Origin: Candidatus Avelusimicrobium intestinipullorum
GTDB taxonomy: Bacteria; Elusimicrobiota; Elusimicrobia; Elusimicrobiales; Elusimicrobiaceae
Reading direction: 5' to 3'
Length of the DNA: 64,000 nucleotides
Assembly: GCA_944324635.1 (NCBI GenBank)
Contig: CALUXC010000004.1
Span: 1 to 64,000 of the forward strand
The translations under genes and the position numbers were made by a program. A model generated the notes under the pieces. It was not told the origin of the DNA. It searched no databases and saw nothing but the letters and a program-made list of their open reading frames with translations. Shown here one piece after another: positions 7,330-12,936 of this stretch (position 1 is its first letter; each line of letters opens with the position of its first letter).

Positions 7330-8049
7330 ATGCAACTTCGCAGCGAACAAATCGTAAAAGTATATAAAGACCGCATGGTCGTAAAAGGGGTAGATATTCA
7401 CGTAAAATCCGGCGAAATTGTAGGGCTGTTGGGCCCCAACGGCGCCGGCAAAACGACTTCGTTTTATATGATGGTGGGCTTTATCAGCCCCACCAAAGGC
7501 CGCGTATTTATTGACGGGGACGACGTCACCCAGCTGCCCATGTACGAACGCGCCCGCCACGGCCTGGGATATCTGGCCCAGGAACCCACCATTTTCAAGG
7601 GCCTTACCGTGGAAGAAAACCTGCTTGCCGTATTGGAACGTATTTTGGACGATAAGCAAGAACAAAAACGCCGCGTGGACGCCTTGTTGAACGAATTTGG
7701 GCTGACGAAACTGGCCAAGCAAAAAGCCTGGACGCTTTCCGGCGGCGAAAAACGCCGTATGGAAATTGCCCGCTGCATGATCAGCAACCCCAAAATTATT
7801 TTGCTGGACGAACCTTTCGTGGGTATTGACCCGATTACCGTGTCCGACCTGCGGCATATGATTTTTAAGTTAAAAGACAAAGGCATCGGCGTTTTGATTA
7901 CCGACCACAACGTGCGCGAAACGCTGCCCCTTACCGAGCGGGCCTACCTGATTTACGACGGGAAAATCCTCGTAGAGGGCGACCAAAACACCCTGCTCAA
8001 CGACCCCAATGCAAGACGTCTTTACCTGGGCGAAGATTTCAAGATGTGA
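7330..8049 (+). CDS. lptB: LPS export ABC transporter ATPase LptB
   Basis: The 239-residue product is a single ABC ATPase domain with Walker A GPNGAGKTT, Q-loop region YLAQEPTIFKGLTVEENLLAVLE (LptB-like), signature LSGGEKRR, Walker B KIILLDEP and the switch His in ITDHNVRETL. The C-terminus LVEGDQNTLLNDPNARRLYLGEDFKM is typical of LptB. It energises extraction of LPS from the inner membrane together with LptF/LptG, which are not in this window. AGAGG lies eleven bases before the ATG. The stop overlaps the following gene. Confidence 0.95.
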   Translation: MQLRSEQIVKVYKDRMVVKGVDIHVKSGEIVGLLGPNGAGKTTSFYMMVGFISPTKGRVFIDGDDVTQLPMYERARHGLGYLAQEPTIFKGLTVEENLLAVLERILDDKQEQKRRVDALLNEFGLTKLAKQKAWTLSGGEKRRMEIARCMISNPKIILLDEPFVGIDPITVSDLRHMIFKLKDKGIGVLITDHNVRETLPLTERAYLIYDGKILVEGDQNTLLNDPNARRLYLGEDFKM

Positions 8050-8882
8050 GGCTCGCCGTGAGCGATTTGTTTGATAAAACCGCCGAAGAGCTGAAAAGCA
8101 CCTTCGACAAGAATTTCTTTCAAAAAGCCAAATTTATTCCCTCCGCCAAAAAGACGGTGGCCATTTTTTGCGCCTTAAAAGATTTCCTGTTCCAATATCC
8201 GCTGGAGTCGGGGCGGGAAACTACGTTCACCTTGGAAAGCCTGGCCGCGCGGCTGGAAGAGCAAATCAAAAATTCGTTGTGCTTTATGTGCAAAGAAAAA
8301 GCGGTTTGCACCCACTGCGAAGCAGAAGCCAAGCAAATTACGCAAGATTTCATTTTGGCCCTGCCCGATATCCAGCGCCTCATTATCAGCGACGTAAACG
8401 CCGCCTACGAAGGCGACCCCGCCGCCATCAGCCCTGTGGAACCCCTGCTGTGCTACCCGGGCGTAACGGCCGTTACGCTGCAGCGCATGGCGCATTTTTT
8501 GCATGAGCGGGGCGTGCGGCTTATTCCGCGTATCGTTACCGAATATGCACACAATTTAACCGGTATAGACATTCACCCCGGTGCCGCCATCGGGCCCGGC
8601 TTCTTTATTGATCACGGGACGGGCGTGGTGATTGGGGAAACGTGCGTCATTGGGGCCAACGTCAAGCTCTACCAGGGCGTTACGCTGGGGGCAAAAAGCT
8701 TTCCGCTGGACGAACACGGGAACCCCGTCAAAGGCATTAAGCGCCACCCGAATATTGAAGACGATGTGATTATCTATGCCGAAACCACCGTGCTGGGCAA
8801 TATCACCATCGGCAAAGGCAGCATCATCGGGGCCAACAAATGGATTACCCAAGATGTCCCCCCTCACAGCAAAATAAACTAA
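8046..8882 (+). CDS. cysE: Serine O-acetyltransferase with an N-terminal four-Cys motif
   Basis: The 278-residue product transfers acetyl from acetyl-CoA to serine, first step of cysteine synthesis. The C-terminal half is a left-handed beta-helix of hexapeptide repeats (GIDIHPGAAIGPGFFIDHGTGVVIGETCVIGANVKLYQGVTLGA) with catalytic His residues in FFIDHGTG and IKRHPNIEDDV. The N-terminal helical domain resembles the longer EpsC/SAT type. It carries an unusual C-x2-C-x5-C-x2-C cluster (SLCFMCKEKAVCTHCEAEA, about residues 78-90), which could bind metal. The start is uncertain: GTG at 8046 overlaps lptB's stop, and GTG at 8058 is an alternative. It is the last gene of the LPS operon, with a terminator behind it. 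Confidence 0.88.
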   Translation: MRLAVSDLFDKTAEELKSTFDKNFFQKAKFIPSAKKTVAIFCALKDFLFQYPLESGRETTFTLESLAARLEEQIKNSLCFMCKEKAVCTHCEAEAKQITQDFILALPDIQRLIISDVNAAYEGDPAAISPVEPLLCYPGVTAVTLQRMAHFLHERGVRLIPRIVTEYAHNLTGIDIHPGAAIGPGFFIDHGTGVVIGETCVIGANVKLYQGVTLGAKSFPLDEHGNPVKGIKRHPNIEDDVIIYAETTVLGNITIGKGSIIGANKWITQDVPPHSKIN

Positions 8883-8892
8883 GCCGTTTTAA

Positions 8893-9010
8893 CAAAAAAA
8901 TCCCGAGCTCATCAGCTCGGGATTTTTATTTATTCAAGCACGTTTTTATCAGGTAATCGTATATAGTTATTACTTCGGGAACCCCATTTTTAATCGGGCA
9001 AGCACACATA
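8893..9010. repeat. Partial third copy of the duplicated unit (3' end)
   Basis: This stretch matches 10524-10641 with one evident substitution (A/G near 8972): hairpin, spacer and the last codons plus stop of a tail ending CLPD. Beyond about 9010 the two diverge while remaining alignable as protein. It marks the downstream end of the tandem duplication. Confidence 0.85.
8894..8927. terminator. Bidirectional terminator, copy 1 of 3
   Basis: TCCCGAGCT-CATC-AGCTCGGGA (8901-8922) has seven T on the minus side and five T on the plus side. It ends the cysE operon on the plus strand and the orphan tail region on the minus strand. The same hairpin and flanks recur at 10532 and 11794. Confidence 0.9.
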
Positions 9011-9303
9011 AGCCACACAACCCATTGTATATTTAGCTCCTAACGATATACCCCCATAAGTAGTATGGTAATACGCCAATGTATTGGACTCCGATGAAGA
9101 ACAAAAAACAACTTGTTTCCAAATAAAAGACCCGGCGTCTGCGTAGAGAGCTTTTCTGGTTTGGTTATGGTGCACAAACACATTTCTCAAGGGGCAAATG
9201 AGCCCGTCAGGAAACTTAACGTAAACGCAAAACCAATCAAACCATAGCGATGTTATACCAAAAAGACGAGGAAAGAAACCGTTAAAAATATCCCGGTCGT
9301 TTA
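8990..9303 (-). pseudogene. Orphan C-terminal tail of the variable secreted protein
   Basis: The frame is open for about 109 codons from just after the stop of the 9330-10382 gene, but has no ATG until near its end. It ends LGAKYTMGCVAYVCLPD, aligning with the last 40 residues of the 10621-11643 product: C-S-x-S, L-x-YYH-x-x-Y-x-G, SLGA-x-x-TMGCVAYVCLPD. It lacks signal peptide, conserved N-terminal region and RBS, and lies behind the terminator of the preceding gene, so it should not be expressed as such. It looks like an old tail displaced when the gene acquired a new 3' end. A silent donor cassette is possible. A 66-codon ORF from TTG at 9190 exists within it. Confidence 0.7.
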
Positions 9304-9314
9304 TGACCGGGATA
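9284..9314 (-). terminator. Terminator private to variable-tail gene A
   Basis: TATCCCGGTC-GTTTAT-GACCGGGATA (9289-9314) with five T on the minus strand. It differs from the TCCCGAGCT hairpins that end the duplicated unit, so gene A's tail came with, or gained, its own terminator. Confidence 0.85.
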
Positions 9315-9329
9315 TAATATCATCCAGCC

Positions 9330-10382
9330 TTATTCCGTCAAACTCCGGCATTGATAAATATAACATCCACTTCCATACGGTGATACACAATAGGAGCCAT
9401 ACAATCCCGAAGATTGCGGCCAATCGCAGGACTCGTTAAGCCCATATCCTCTGTTGCAATAAGAAGAGGAAGCACGTTGGCAATAAGATTTATTTGAGCT
9501 TTTTGTAAATGATCCTAAACTAGTGTACACGGCACCAGTACACGGGCCCCAATTGCCCCAACTGCATGTATATTGGTTCCAACTGCGCGTCCGTTTGCCG
9601 GAGACGGTTACCGGCCCTATACGAGTAGAAGGAGAATCGCTTTGAGAAGCGTAGGTGTAATAAGCCTTAAAAGAGCACTTTTCTTCTTGTGTTGTCACAG
9701 AAGGGGATCCACCGCTACAAGTGCTCCACGTTCCAGTTACCCACTCCCCGGTAGAAGTATCACAGGTAACACTGCGTGTCTGCGTACCACACCCATTACA
9801 CTTTTGACTGGTAGCCGGTTTAGAAGAGGGGTCGCAGCCAACATTTTTAGCTTCTCCACACACCAAAAAAACTTCTTCTTTATCTTTCAATTTTAATTTT
9901 TGCCAAGATACTTGAGGCGCGTTTGGCGCGCCCGTAGCGGCACAGCTGGGAAAATCATTTTTGATTCTAGACGGAAACAGCTTTAGAATATCCACAGTCA
10001 TTTGATTTGTTTCCAAACTATATCCATTATTAAGAGTCCCTATACGAAGATCTTCCAAAAAATTGATTTCAGCCAAACCGCTTCCACTTCCGAGGGATAC
10101 TTGATTGCTAACAACAGCAGTTGCCGAATTCAGTTCCAAACGCCCTCTTTCTAAAAATCCATTTGTTACTTGTAATGGTTTTAAGCCGGCGGCCCCACTT
10201 TCAGAACACCCCAAATTCATTTCACATGTACTGGTTAACCCAACATCTAACTGTTTATTAACATTAATTTTGCTATATGCCACATACGGCACTGGAAAAT
10301 AAGTAACCATGGTGATTTTATTTTCTGCCTGGATAGCAATAGAAGAAAAAAGCAAAAAACACATCATCATATATTTTTTCAT
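9330..10382 (-). CDS. Secreted protein with conserved N-terminus and variable Cys-rich tail (gene A)
   Basis: The 350-residue product has signal peptide MKKYMMMCFLLFSSIAIQA, then residues 20-190 identical to gene B (TMVTYFPVPYVAYSKINVNKQLDV..., LFPSRIKNDFPSC, LKDKEEVFLVCGEAKNVGCDPSSKPAT). From about 191 it differs: CNGCGTQTRSVTCDTSTG then two W-x-x-C stretches (GTWSTCSGG, WGNWGPCTG) that recall thrombospondin type-1 repeats, and a Cys/Tyr-rich end. I recognise no family for the constant part. It is probably exported and disulfide-bonded; surface display is inference. AAAGGAG lies before the ATG. The promoter has a T10 tract. It ends with its own hairpin, behind which an older tail remains. 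Confidence 0.85.
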   Translation of the reverse strand: MKKYMMMCFLLFSSIAIQAENKITMVTYFPVPYVAYSKINVNKQLDVGLTSTCEMNLGCSESGAAGLKPLQVTNGFLERGRLELNSATAVVSNQVSLGSGSGLAEINFLEDLRIGTLNNGYSLETNQMTVDILKLFPSRIKNDFPSCAATGAPNAPQVSWQKLKLKDKEEVFLVCGEAKNVGCDPSSKPATSQKCNGCGTQTRSVTCDTSTGEWVTGTWSTCSGGSPSVTTQEEKCSFKAYYTYASQSDSPSTRIGPVTVSGKRTRSWNQYTCSWGNWGPCTGAVYTSLGSFTKSSNKSYCQRASSSYCNRGYGLNESCDWPQSSGLYGSYCVSPYGSGCYIYQCRSLTE

Positions 10383-10467
10383 AAATACTCCTTTTTGCTT
10401 TCAAAACCTTTCGGATAGACAAAACAACGGATAACACTGGAAACATCGCTCTCGGAAGGCAATTCAA

Positions 10468-10493
10468 AATTTATCAAAAAAAAAACGAGTCAA
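10468..10493 (-). promoter_or_regulatory. Promoter of gene A with T10 tract in the spacer
   Basis: On the minus strand, TTGACT (10493-10488) and the -10-like TAAATT (10473-10468) are 14 bases apart. Ten of the spacer bases are a T run (plus-strand A at 10476-10485). Spacing is short of the usual 16-18. The -10 assignment is by eye. Confidence 0.5.
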
Positions 10494-10523
10494 GTCTCCC
10501 GTCTTTTTCTCCCTTTTATAAAC

Positions 10524-10558
10524 AAAAAAAATCCCGAGCTCATCAGCTCGGGATTTTT
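10524..10558. terminator. Bidirectional terminator, copy 2 of 3
   Basis: TCCCGAGCT-CATC-AGCTCGGGA (10532-10553) with eight T on the minus strand and five on the plus. It ends gene B and stands directly before gene A's promoter. Confidence 0.9.
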
Positions 10559-10620
10559 ATTTATTCAAGCACGTTTTTATCAGGTAATCGTATATAGTTA
10601 TTGCTTCGGGAACCCCATTT

Positions 10621-11643
10621 TTAATCGGGCAAGCACACATACGCTACACAGCCCATAGTATGCAAGGCTCCCAAAGAAAACCCATTATACACAGCATGAT
10701 AATAAAACAATTGTCCATATTGAGAAGCACTGCACGCACCGCTCTTAACCGTGCTGGTGGTACCGATAGGGCCACTCCACGAGCTTCTAGCCGCCTGTAC
10801 CACTTCATTGCAGCTATTACCCGAATTAAAGGGACCTTCCGGTCCAACCACACTGCCATAGAACATAGGACAGAAAAAAGAAGAGCCGGAAGAAGAACCC
10901 GGATCAAAAACGCAGTCCATGGCAGCATCTCTCTGCCAAGAATAAGTGGCGCACAAAGACGCATCCGACACGCTGCAATTTCCCCAAGAAATCTGCCACT
11001 TTCCCGTACTTGTATTACAGCTTACACTTGCTTGCTGAGTACCACAACCGTTACACACCCTAGGAGACGGCGTGGCCGGTTTAGAAGAGGGGTCGCAACC
11101 AACATTTTTAGCTTCTCCACACACCAAAAAAACTTCTTCTTTATCTTTCAATTTTAATTTTTGCCAAGATACTTGAGGCGCGTTTGGCGCGCCCGTAGCG
11201 GCACAGCTGGGAAAATCATTTTTGATTCTAGACGGAAACAGCTTTAGAATATCCACAGTCATTTGATTTGTTTCCAAACTATATCCATTATTAAGAGTCC
11301 CTATACGAAGATCTTCCAAAAAATTGATTTCAGCCAAACCGCTTCCACTTCCGAGGGATACTTGATTGCTAACAACAGCAGTTGCCGAATTCAGTTCCAA
11401 ACGCCCTCTTTCTAAAAATCCATTTGTTACTTGTAATGGTTTTAAGCCGGCGGCCCCACTTTCAGAACACCCCAAATTCATTTCACATGTACTGGTTAAC
11501 CCAACATCTAACTGTTTATTAACATTAATTTTGCTATATGCCACATACGGCACTGGAAAATAAGTAACCATGGTGATTTTATTTTCTGCCTGGATAGCAA
11601 TAGAAGAAAAAAGCAAAAAACACATCATCATATATTTTTTCAT
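10621..11643 (-). CDS. Secreted protein with conserved N-terminus and variable Cys-rich tail (gene B)
   Basis: The 340-residue product has the same signal peptide and first ~190 residues as gene A, identical by eye. The tail diverges after PSSKPAT: CNGCGTQQASVSCNTSTGKWQISWGNCS keeps the C-G-C-G-T-Q / T-S-T-G-x-W frame. The rest (CATYSWQRDAAMDCVFDPGSSSG..., CNEVVQAARSSW, QLFYYHAVYNGFSLGALHTMGCVAYVCLPD) is unlike A and resembles the orphan tail at 8990-9303. It is probably secreted and disulfide-rich; role unknown. Same RBS as A. Promoter with T12 tract and a better 16-bp spacer, so this copy may be the more active one. Confidence 0.85.
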   Translation of the reverse strand: MKKYMMMCFLLFSSIAIQAENKITMVTYFPVPYVAYSKINVNKQLDVGLTSTCEMNLGCSESGAAGLKPLQVTNGFLERGRLELNSATAVVSNQVSLGSGSGLAEINFLEDLRIGTLNNGYSLETNQMTVDILKLFPSRIKNDFPSCAATGAPNAPQVSWQKLKLKDKEEVFLVCGEAKNVGCDPSSKPATPSPRVCNGCGTQQASVSCNTSTGKWQISWGNCSVSDASLCATYSWQRDAAMDCVFDPGSSSGSSFFCPMFYGSVVGPEGPFNSGNSCNEVVQAARSSWSGPIGTTSTVKSGACSASQYGQLFYYHAVYNGFSLGALHTMGCVAYVCLPD

Positions 11644-11728
11644 AAATACTCCTTTTTGCTTTCAAAACCTTTCGGATAGACAAAACAACGGATAACACTG
11701 GAAACATCGCTCTCGGAAGGCAATTCAA

Positions 11729-11756
11729 AATTTATCAAAAAAAAAAAACGAGTCAA
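11729..11756 (-). promoter_or_regulatory. Promoter of gene B with T12 tract in the spacer
   Basis: On the minus strand, TTGACT (11756-11751) and TAAATT (11734-11729) are separated by 16 bases, including a T12 run (plus-strand A at 11737-11748). It is identical to gene A's promoter apart from the two extra T. Confidence 0.5.
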
Positions 11757-11786
11757 GTCTCCCGTCTTTTTCTCCCTTTTATAAAC

Positions 11787-11820
11787 AAAAAAATCCCGAG
11801 CTCATCAGCTCGGGATTTTT
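11787..11820. terminator. Bidirectional terminator, copy 3 of 3
   Basis: TCCCGAGCT-CATC-AGCTCGGGA (11794-11815), seven T on the minus strand and five on the plus. It ends the TPR-gene operon; this is probably the parental copy. Confidence 0.9.
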
Positions 11821-11841
11821 ATTTATTCAAACACGTTTTTA

Positions 11842-12936
11842 TCAGGTGTAGCTTTCCAAATACGTGTGCAGGCCTTCCGCACGCGCCTGGGAAACGCCCG
11901 CCTCGTAAAGTTCCTCGGCTTCCTGCGTTTGGCCCAGCGCATACAGCACCTGGGCCAAAGAAAGCTTGGTTAAAATTTGGCCGCGGGTTTCGTCGGAATT
12001 ATCAAACAGCACACGCGCTTCCTGCAAATCTTTCAACGCGGCGTCCATTTTATTTTTCCGTTTCAAAATGTCGGCACGGCCCCATTTCACAAAGCCCAAG
12101 TCCACCGTGTCGTTGATGGCGGAATAGAGTTTATCGGCCACGTTGTAGTGGCGGAGGGCTTCGTCATACTTCCCCTGCTGGCGAAGGCCGTTGGCCATGC
12201 CGCAGTTGGTGTAGGCTTTGCCAAAAAGGTCCTCGCTTTTGCGGAAGATTTTTTCGGCCAGTTTATAGTTTTTGACGCAGTCGTCAATCTTCCCGCAAAT
12301 GCGGCTGATACCGGCCAGCCCGCAGTAACCGTAGGCCAAGCTGATGTCATCGCCCGCTTTTTTGGCCAAAGAAATAGCTTTTTTGAATTGGGCAATCCCT
12401 TCCTGAAAATGACCCTGCAAGCGGAAGATGCCGCCTTTGGCCCAGTGGATAAAGCTCATTCCCGCGTAGTCTTTCAGCTGGGTATATGCGGCCAATACGG
12501 CGTCCAGCAAGTCCAGCGCTTCTTCCAGCCGGCCCCAGGCACGCAACGCCATGCCCATTTCCTGCATGGCACGCACCACAAACTCGTCGTATTCCAATTC
12601 CTGCGCCATATTCAGGGCGTCCTGCGCCAGTTCATACGCCGCGGCGGAATGCCCCAACGTGCGGTAGCAGGCCGCCATGGCCAACAGCACGTCCATGCGG
12701 GTTTCGGCTTCGTCGGCCAGCTGCAGGGCTTTGGCATAGCTTTTCAGCGCATCTTCAAACGAACCCAACTGGCGCTGGGCTTCGCCGGTCAAAAACCACG
12801 CCGCCGCGTCTTTGGTGCGGGCGGAAACCAGCTTTTCCAACGCTTCGGAAGGGCGGTTGGCTTCCAACAGTTCTTCCAGGGCGGCTAAATCCAATTTTAC
12901 GGCTCGTTTGACGGTTTTCTTTTTGTTTGCGGGCAT
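11842..12936 (-). CDS. Cytoplasmic tetratricopeptide-repeat protein
   Basis: The 364-residue product has a Lys-rich start (MPANKKKTVKRAV) and then about eight TPR-like helical pairs from residue 15 to the end (AAWFLTGEAQRQLGSFEDALKSYAKAL, YAGMSFIHWAKGGIFRLQGHFQEGIAQFKKAISLAKKAG, AYTNCGMANGLRQQGKYDEALRHYNVADKLY). There is no signal peptide or TM segment, so it is a cytoplasmic scaffold. Spacing between repeats (about 40) recalls LGN/Rapsyn-like TPRs. It is the last gene of a minus-strand unit with the receiver-domain gene 45 bp upstream, so a role as a partner of that regulator is possible but unproven. GGGAG lies eight bases before the ATG. Confidence 0.85.
   Translation of the reverse strand: MPANKKKTVKRAVKLDLAALEELLEANRPSEALEKLVSARTKDAAAWFLTGEAQRQLGSFEDALKSYAKALQLADEAETRMDVLLAMAACYRTLGHSAAAYELAQDALNMAQELEYDEFVVRAMQEMGMALRAWGRLEEALDLLDAVLAAYTQLKDYAGMSFIHWAKGGIFRLQGHFQEGIAQFKKAISLAKKAGDDISLAYGYCGLAGISRICGKIDDCVKNYKLAEKIFRKSEDLFGKAYTNCGMANGLRQQGKYDEALRHYNVADKLYSAINDTVDLGFVKWGRADILKRKNKMDAALKDLQEARVLFDNSDETRGQILTKLSLAQVLYALGQTQEAEELYEAGVSQARAEGLHTYLESYT

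What the first reader, a model, noticed from the sequence alone, without database searches (positions are those of the whole stretch)
8893..11847. Tandem secreted-protein genes with a frozen N-terminus and swapped C-terminal tails
Two adjacent genes (9330-10382, 10621-11643) share promoter, RBS, signal peptide and about 190 codons almost base for base, yet have unrelated lengths and sequences in the last ~150 residues, both Cys-rich. Non-coding flanks are equally identical, so the sharing is recent or maintained by gene conversion. The tails alone have changed. That is the pattern of a recombination-driven antigenic or adhesin variation locus, or of tail exchange as in polymorphic toxins. I know of no named system with this constant domain.
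Basis: partly seen in the sequence, partly recalled or inferred. Interest (0 to 1): 0.88.

Follow-up and report, generated by a model that had tools for sequence, protein, structure and literature searches.

The report
Shared-head, swapped-tail secreted protein family
Gut bacteria of the Elusimicrobium group carry a family of secreted proteins scattered around the genome whose front half is kept nearly identical from copy to copy while the disulfide-rich back half is exchanged; this looks like a toolkit of interchangeable surface binding tips, and neither domain databases nor our literature search held a description of it.

Summary
Two minus-strand genes (10621-11643, 9330-10382) share 191 identical N-terminal residues; the first 528 coding nt have no difference, and the upstream region is nearly identical. 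They then switch to different Cys-rich tails and rejoin in a shared 3' end. Downstream of gene 1 lies a remnant of a displaced tail of gene 2's type. The constant domain occurs in 63 of 66 genomes of the genus and in sister genera; no Pfam or NCBIfam model covers it. In a closed single-contig genome, five copies at three loci are about 93-99.6% identical over about 510 nt and have different tails.

Both window tails exist in another species on that species' own constant domain. Constant domains cluster mostly by genome, not by locus or tail, so they are homogenised by recombination. Tails are old, evolve as slowly as the head, and move between loci.

The promoter matches one found before type IV prepilin genes, and tails almost always have an even cysteine count. 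Best reading: exported, pilin-co-expressed surface proteins, probably adhesins, with exchangeable tips. It works like a shufflon or the H. pylori bab genes but belongs to neither.

The parts
10621..11643 (-). Gene 2: secreted protein of 340 aa = constant head + T2 tail
   Evidence: T2 tail relatives in G080 (54% aa) and G061 (55% over 91 aa)
9330..10382 (-). Gene 1: secreted protein of 350 aa = constant head + T1 tail
   Evidence: T1 tail relatives in G080 (73% aa) and G083 (57%)
11116..11643 (-). Constant domain of gene 2 (signal peptide, MVTYFPVPYVAYS motif, ends at FLVCG)
   Evidence: 528 nt identical to gene 1; alignment A1
9855..10382 (-). Constant domain of gene 1
10624..11115 (-). Variable tail T2 (12 Cys)
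9333..9854 (-). Variable tail T1 (14 Cys)
9693..9812 (-). CNGCGTQTRxVTCDTSTGxW...W..C module of gene 1, thrombospondin-1-like, shared with prepilin-like proteins
   Evidence: tandem array of the module scores E=0.0009 to TSP1_ADAMTS, below the curated cut-off
10954..11070 (-). The same type of Cys module in gene 2
8993..9319 (-). Displaced tail remnant: open frame without a start, last 37 codons homologous to T2 tails
   Evidence: 76% to G080 T2, 68% to gene 2; only 14 of 2000 shuffles give so long an open frame
9288..9315 (-). Hairpin (terminator-like) between gene 1's stop and the remnant, absent from gene 2's unit
   Evidence: sequence
11070..11847 (-). Near-identical block, copy 1 (terminator, promoter, RBS, constant domain)
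9809..10585 (-). Near-identical block, copy 2
11731..11756 (-). Promoter-like motif TTGACTCG-T12-GATAAA of gene 2
10470..10493 (-). Promoter-like motif TTGACTCG-T10-GATAAA of gene 1
11789..11820 (.). Bidirectional terminator copy next to the TPR gene
10527..10558 (.). Bidirectional terminator copy between the two genes
8896..8927 (.). Bidirectional terminator copy next to cysE
11842..12936 (-). TPR-repeat gene; conserved upstream neighbour ('home' locus) in many species
8046..8882 (+). cysE-like gene; far border of the insert (71 bp from the TPR gene in the empty site of G029)

Best explanation
A lineage-specific, multi-locus family of exported modular proteins in Elusimicrobiaceae. Each protein has a constant head (signal peptide plus a ~155-residue domain with the motif MVTYFPVPYVAYS) and, usually, one exchangeable disulfide-rich tail of about 85-480 residues. 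Homologous recombination between dispersed copies keeps the heads nearly identical within a genome. Because homology stops at the head/tail boundary, the same process swaps tails between loci without a site-specific recombinase. The promoter is of a class also found in front of type IV prepilin genes, so the proteins are probably made together with the pilus/secretion apparatus. The head would dock the protein to a common export or surface structure, and the tail would be the binding tip (adhesin-like). Shown: the family, head homogenisation, the sharp boundary, different tails at orthologous loci, a displaced tail remnant, and the promoter link. Inferred: surface or pilus location, disulfide bonding, binding role. 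My separate confidences: recombination pattern about 0.9; exported or surface-displayed about 0.75; adhesin/binding tip about 0.5.
For: Family in 63 of 66 genus genomes; weaker relatives in sister genera and families; no Pfam or NCBIfam family. Within-genome head identity with different tails: 84-93% among most of G061's copies, about 93-94% in G080, 93-97% in G068's three-gene array; about 93-99.6% for five genes at three loci of closed genome G117. Of 33 within-genome pairs at >=84% nt identity, 27 lose similarity within -1 to +21 nt of the head's end. Head tree: copies at different loci cluster by genome with support 1.0 in G061 (7 copies) and 0.998 in G080 (3); G068's tandem copies 1.0. 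Heads of G000 and G061 are 67-68% identical at two shared loci, while the two G061 heads are 84% alike. Both window tails occur in G080 on G080's own head. Home locus beside the TPR gene in seven species: no detectable tail similarity except one close pair (G012/G014), one shared 45-residue module (G061/G028) and one 10-residue match; the same tail types lie at other loci elsewhere (G000 locus A = G061 home locus, 46% over 207 aa; G065 home = G081 locus A, 45% over 184 aa). Displaced tail remnant after gene 1; empty site in G029. Contig ends fall inside heads far more often than expected (7 of 9 in G061, P=8e-7; 4 of 4 in G021, P=3e-9), as near-identical dispersed repeats would cause. Promoter motif T10-GATAMA occurs 8 times in the own genome, reversed control 0: twice at these genes, six times just upstream of prepilin genes. 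Tails 8.0% Cys against 2.4% in heads; 45 tails with even and 4 with odd Cys count.
Against: No strain-level or population data: only one genome per species was available, so the rate of tail exchange within a species is unknown. In the own genome the other three loci are only about 64-68% identical to the window pair at nt level, so homogenisation there is strong only within the tandem pair. Genome-wise clustering holds for 9 of 13 multi-copy genomes, with weak support in two (G000 0.60, G081 0.40). Ten of 71 copies lack a tail. AlphaFold gave a low-confidence head (pLDDT <50 over most of it) and no structural match, so export partner, fold and ligand are unknown.
Confidence: 0.62

Rival explanations
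1. Plain recent tandem duplication of one gene, followed by one tail replacement; nothing systematic and no ongoing exchange.
For: The two genes are adjacent, with identical heads, promoters and terminators, and a tail remnant is visible.
Against: Both tails are found in G080 on its own head copies. The same pattern occurs independently in G061, G068, G021, G080 and closed genome G117. Orthologous loci carry different tails across seven species.
Confidence: 0.15
2. Antigenic or phase variation: one expressed site fed by silent tail cassettes under immune or phage selection.
For: Tail exchange at fixed junctions; a displaced tail remnant; a homopolymer T tract of 12 versus 10 in the two promoters.
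Against: The copies are full genes with their own promoters at many loci. Homologous tails evolve under purifying selection (pN 0.22-0.33, pS about 0.75). Where the promoter motif has a T run of at least 9, its length is 12 or 10, never 9, 11 or 13, which argues for a conserved spacer rather than slippage. No cassette archive was seen.
Confidence: 0.15
3. Polymorphic toxins with a constant delivery domain and swapped toxic C-termini.
For: Constant N-terminus, variable C-terminus and an orphan tail downstream resemble the CdiA/Rhs arrangement (PMC3150448).
Against: No immunity-gene-sized ORF of its own between the tails and the next unit; no toxin, PHROG or PADLOC match. Tails are 8% Cys with even counts, as expected of folded extracellular domains.
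Confidence: 0.04
4. Assembly artefact: chimeric or falsely duplicated contig.
For: Long exact repeats are error-prone, and in many genomes contigs break inside the head.
Against: Each tail has an orthologue attached to a head in another species; the same architecture appears in a closed single-contig genome and a two-contig genome.
Confidence: 0.03

Closest known systems
Shufflon-controlled PilV minor pilins (plasmids R64, TP114; PMC9045228)
   Same: Constant N-terminus with variable C-terminal tails that act as adhesins on a type IV pilus; here too a promoter class shared with prepilin genes.
   Different: No prepilin N-methylation motif in the head, no clustered invertible cassettes, and no recombinase gene next to the copies. 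Variation comes from dispersed full genes and homologous recombination.
Helicobacter pylori Bab outer-membrane adhesins (PMC4552749)
   Same: Few loci, paralogues with near-identical ends and a divergent binding region, gene conversion between loci, paralogue identity not fixed to a locus.
   Different: Unrelated proteins. Here homology covers promoter and head, the tail is the C-terminus, the family is larger, and no Hop homology is found.
CdiA/Rhs polymorphic toxins (PMC3150448)
   Same: Constant head, exchangeable C-terminus, orphan displaced tail.
   Different: No toxin domain, no immunity gene, no two-partner or T6SS delivery part.
Cys-rich prepilin-like proteins of the same genomes (own genome C5:90593, C2:63022, C1:10897)
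   Same: They share the CNGCGTQxRxVxC linker module, long Cys-rich variable tails, and a constant N-terminal part.
   Different: They begin with a type IV pilin N-terminus (Pfam N_methyl); the two compared heads are only 76% identical at nt level in the own genome.

Membership tests
Shufflon/PilV | Type IV prepilin N-terminus on the constant part | tested here: not met
   No N_methyl match for the two window proteins or the 25 heads; an ordinary signal peptide is seen instead
Shufflon/PilV | Dedicated tyrosine recombinase (rci) next to the locus | tested here: not met
   Three Phage_integrase matches in the own genome, none beside a copy of the family; the nearest is about 8 kb away on C3
Shufflon/PilV | Constant N-terminus and several alternative C-termini | tested here: met
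Shufflon/PilV | Located on a type IV pilus | tested here: inconclusive
   Promoter motif shared with prepilin genes; no localisation data
H. pylori bab-type paralogous adhesins | Gene conversion between paralogues at several loci | tested here: met
   Clustering by genome across shared loci
H. pylori bab-type paralogous adhesins | Hop outer-membrane protein homology | tested here: not met
   No Pfam or NCBIfam match
Polymorphic toxins (CdiA/Rhs) | Immunity gene next to the variable tail | tested here: not met
   No such ORF between the genes
Polymorphic toxins (CdiA/Rhs) | Toxin domain in the tail | tested here: not met
   only described toxins can be recognised
Thrombospondin type 1 repeat proteins | TSP1 domain match in the Cys module | tested here: inconclusive
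   A tandem array of the module scores E=0.0009 to TSP1_ADAMTS, below the curated cut-off
Any solved structure | Fold match for head or tail | tested here: inconclusive
   Low-confidence models, no significant match; weak sequence hit of T2 to LECT2, E=0.0098

The most novel reading that the evidence does not exclude
A recombinase-free 'dispersed shufflon': a whole bacterial family keeps a genome-wide set of interchangeable surface tips by domain-limited concerted evolution. The docking head and its promoter are continuously homogenised, and the disulfide-rich tips move between chromosomal loci. A pilin-linked promoter class controls the set, and prepilin-like proteins draw on some of the same tip modules.
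Probability: 0.4. Interest if true: 0.78.

Novelty: new variant of a known kind. Interest (0 to 1): 0.62.

Why it matters
Elusimicrobiota are gut bacteria that are mostly uncultured, and their surface proteins are almost unknown. This family gives a concrete, testable candidate for how they bind hosts, particles or other microbes. It also shows homologous recombination alone keeping one domain uniform while letting another vary, which usually needs a dedicated recombinase or cassette archive. The near-identical heads break short-read assemblies at exactly these genes, so the tail repertoire of these bacteria is probably under-recorded in metagenome-assembled genomes.

Tried and rejected
Structure: AlphaFold2 with 35-row alignments for both proteins gave mean pLDDT 58 and 55, pTM 0.29. 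Only the hairpin at the head's end and the Cys module were fairly confident. The PDB fold search (gene 2 model) gave no meaningful match. The head may be an oligomeric fibre that a monomer model cannot show; that is a guess.

LECT2 (M23-like) similarity of tail T2: E=0.0098 by single-sequence search, not supported elsewhere; not used.

Phage origin: no relative in IMG/VR contigs, no PHROG match.

Phase variation by the poly-T tract: tempting (12 versus 10 T), but among motif instances with a T run of at least 9 the length is only ever 12 or 10, so it looks like a conserved spacer.

Integrase-driven shuffling: three integrase matches in the own genome, none adjacent to a copy.

Literature: searches on Elusimicrobium minutum and on gene conversion found nothing describing this family; the E. 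minutum genome paper is not in the library.
Full report
OBSERVATION. The two genes lie on the minus strand, between a TPR gene (11842-12936, minus) and a cysE-like gene (8046-8882, plus). In transcription order the arrangement is: TPR gene, terminator, gene 2 (head + tail T2), terminator, gene 1 (head + tail T1), hairpin, tail remnant, terminator, cysE. The head's 528 coding nt are identical in both genes; the enclosing block of 779 aligned columns has 5 substitutions and 3 gap columns. Proteins first differ at residue 192. Similarity then falls sharply, except for a Cys module within the first ~55 tail residues (62% identity), and returns in the last codons, 3'UTR and terminator.

TAIL REMNANT. 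After gene 1's stop comes a hairpin of its own, then a frame open for about 109 codons without a plausible start. Its last 37 codons are 76% identical to the T2 tail of relative G080 and 68% to gene 2's tail. It is followed by the same 3'UTR and terminator as gene 2. The simplest reading is that T1 displaced a T2-type tail, leaving its end behind.

EMPTY SITE. In relative G029 the TPR and cysE genes are about 71 bp apart with a single terminator between them. In the window each gene unit is bordered by copies of one terminator.

FAMILY. The own genome holds three further head loci at about 64-68% nt identity to the window pair; one is frame-broken inside the head and one inside the tail. In the genus 63 of 66 genomes have the head; more distant relatives occur in sister genera and a few other families of the phylum. 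No Pfam, NCBIfam, PHROG or PADLOC family covers it. Named records include UBA1436 and Candidatus Avelusimicrobium assemblies.

HEADS ARE HOMOGENISED WITHIN GENOMES. Genome G068 (two contigs) has three tandem copies with 93-97% identical heads; two of its tails share their first ~100 residues and the third is different. Genome G117 is a single 1,643,562-bp contig with five copies at three loci: about 93-99.6% identical over about 510 nt, tails different apart from short shared stretches. In G061 seven of nine copies end at a contig border inside the head, and in G021 four of four; by chance this has P of about 8e-7 and 3e-9. This is what near-identical dispersed repeats do to an assembly. In 27 of 33 within-genome pairs the similarity stops between 1 nt before and 21 nt after the end of the head. 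The head tree groups copies by genome in 9 of 13 multi-copy genomes, strongly in G061, G080, G068, G079, G003 and G001, weakly in G000 and G081. The tail-less copies at a SecDF-linked locus are an exception and group by locus.

TAILS ARE OLD AND MOVE. G080 carries a T1 tail (73% aa) and a T2 tail (54%) on its own heads, which are 66-67% identical to the window heads and about 94% nt-identical to each other. The T1 tail and its head diverged about equally between the species (pN 0.224 and 0.227, pS saturated), so the tail is under purifying selection. At the TPR-linked home locus seven species have tails without detectable similarity, except the close pair G012/G014, a 45-residue module shared by G061 and G028, and one marginal 10-residue match, while the TPR proteins themselves are 85-93% identical to the window's. 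Conversely, the T3 tail is at locus A in the own genome, at the home locus in G061 and at a third locus in G083; G065's home-locus tail matches G081's locus-A tail. Some close relatives keep the same tail at the same locus (G029/G080 at A; the own genome/G021 at C).

FUNCTION. The proteins begin with an ordinary signal peptide (sequence). Tails contain 8.0% Cys against 2.4% for heads, and 45 tails have an even count against 4 odd; this fits disulfide-bonded extracellular domains (inference). The CNGCGTQxRxVxC module also occurs in prepilin-like proteins with long Cys-rich tails, in up to about a dozen tandem copies, and resembles thrombospondin type 1 repeats weakly. The promoter motif TTGACTCG-T10/12-GATAMA is a second link: the own genome has eight T10-GATAMA sites, none in the reversed control; two precede the window genes and the other six lie shortly upstream of prepilin genes in the same orientation. 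The motif occurs in 46 of 66 genus genomes, up to about 64 sites, with zero control matches. The most likely role is therefore a pilin-co-expressed, exported surface protein with an exchangeable binding tip. Location and binding have not been shown.

COMPARISON. It works like shufflon PilV (PMC9045228: constant N-terminus, variable C-terminal adhesin tips) and like the H. pylori bab genes (PMC4552749: shared ends, divergent binding part, gene conversion among loci). It is a member of neither: there is no prepilin N-terminus, no adjacent recombinase and no Hop homology. Toxin systems are unlikely: no immunity gene and no toxin domain.

LIMITS. One genome per species was available, so exchange within a species was not seen. 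Structure prediction failed for the head. The name of G117 was not given by the tools; its length matches, from memory, that of Elusimicrobium minutum Pei191.

Noticed in passing
window 11731-11756 and 10470-10493; genus-wide: A promoter class TTGACTCG-T10/12-GATA(A/C)A lies in front of these genes and of prepilin genes; 46 of 66 genus genomes carry it, up to about 64 sites, with no match to the reversed control.
   Followed up: partly
own genome C5:90593-91048, C2:63022-63462, C1:10897-11330 (L225-L228); L211-L224: A second family with a constant type IV prepilin-like N-terminus and long variable Cys-rich tails shares the Cys linker module; in G070 two contigs both start inside this module with diverging tails after it.
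   Followed up: partly
L211 (G087 C1, 900 aa) and L212 (G025 C107, open frame 1617 aa): Prepilin-like or related proteins with many tandem TSP1-like Cys modules, unusual in bacteria.
   Followed up: no
L006 (own genome C3:10000-10670) and L003 (own genome C1:477730-478350): Two of the own genome's other head copies are interrupted by a frameshift, one in the head and one in the tail; error or pseudogene not decided.
   Followed up: partly
L124, L128, L132, L139: Tail-less copies of the head sit at a SecDF-linked locus in four species and evolve by locus rather than by genome.
   Followed up: partly
own genome, 41 places: The own genome holds some forty prepilin-like matches, a large number for 1.57 Mb.
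   Followed up: no
genomes lacking a cysE match (G004, G011, G015, G019, G022, G032): In several species without a detected cysE the head gene lies next to lptB, the gene before cysE in the window, which suggests the same old locus.
   Followed up: no
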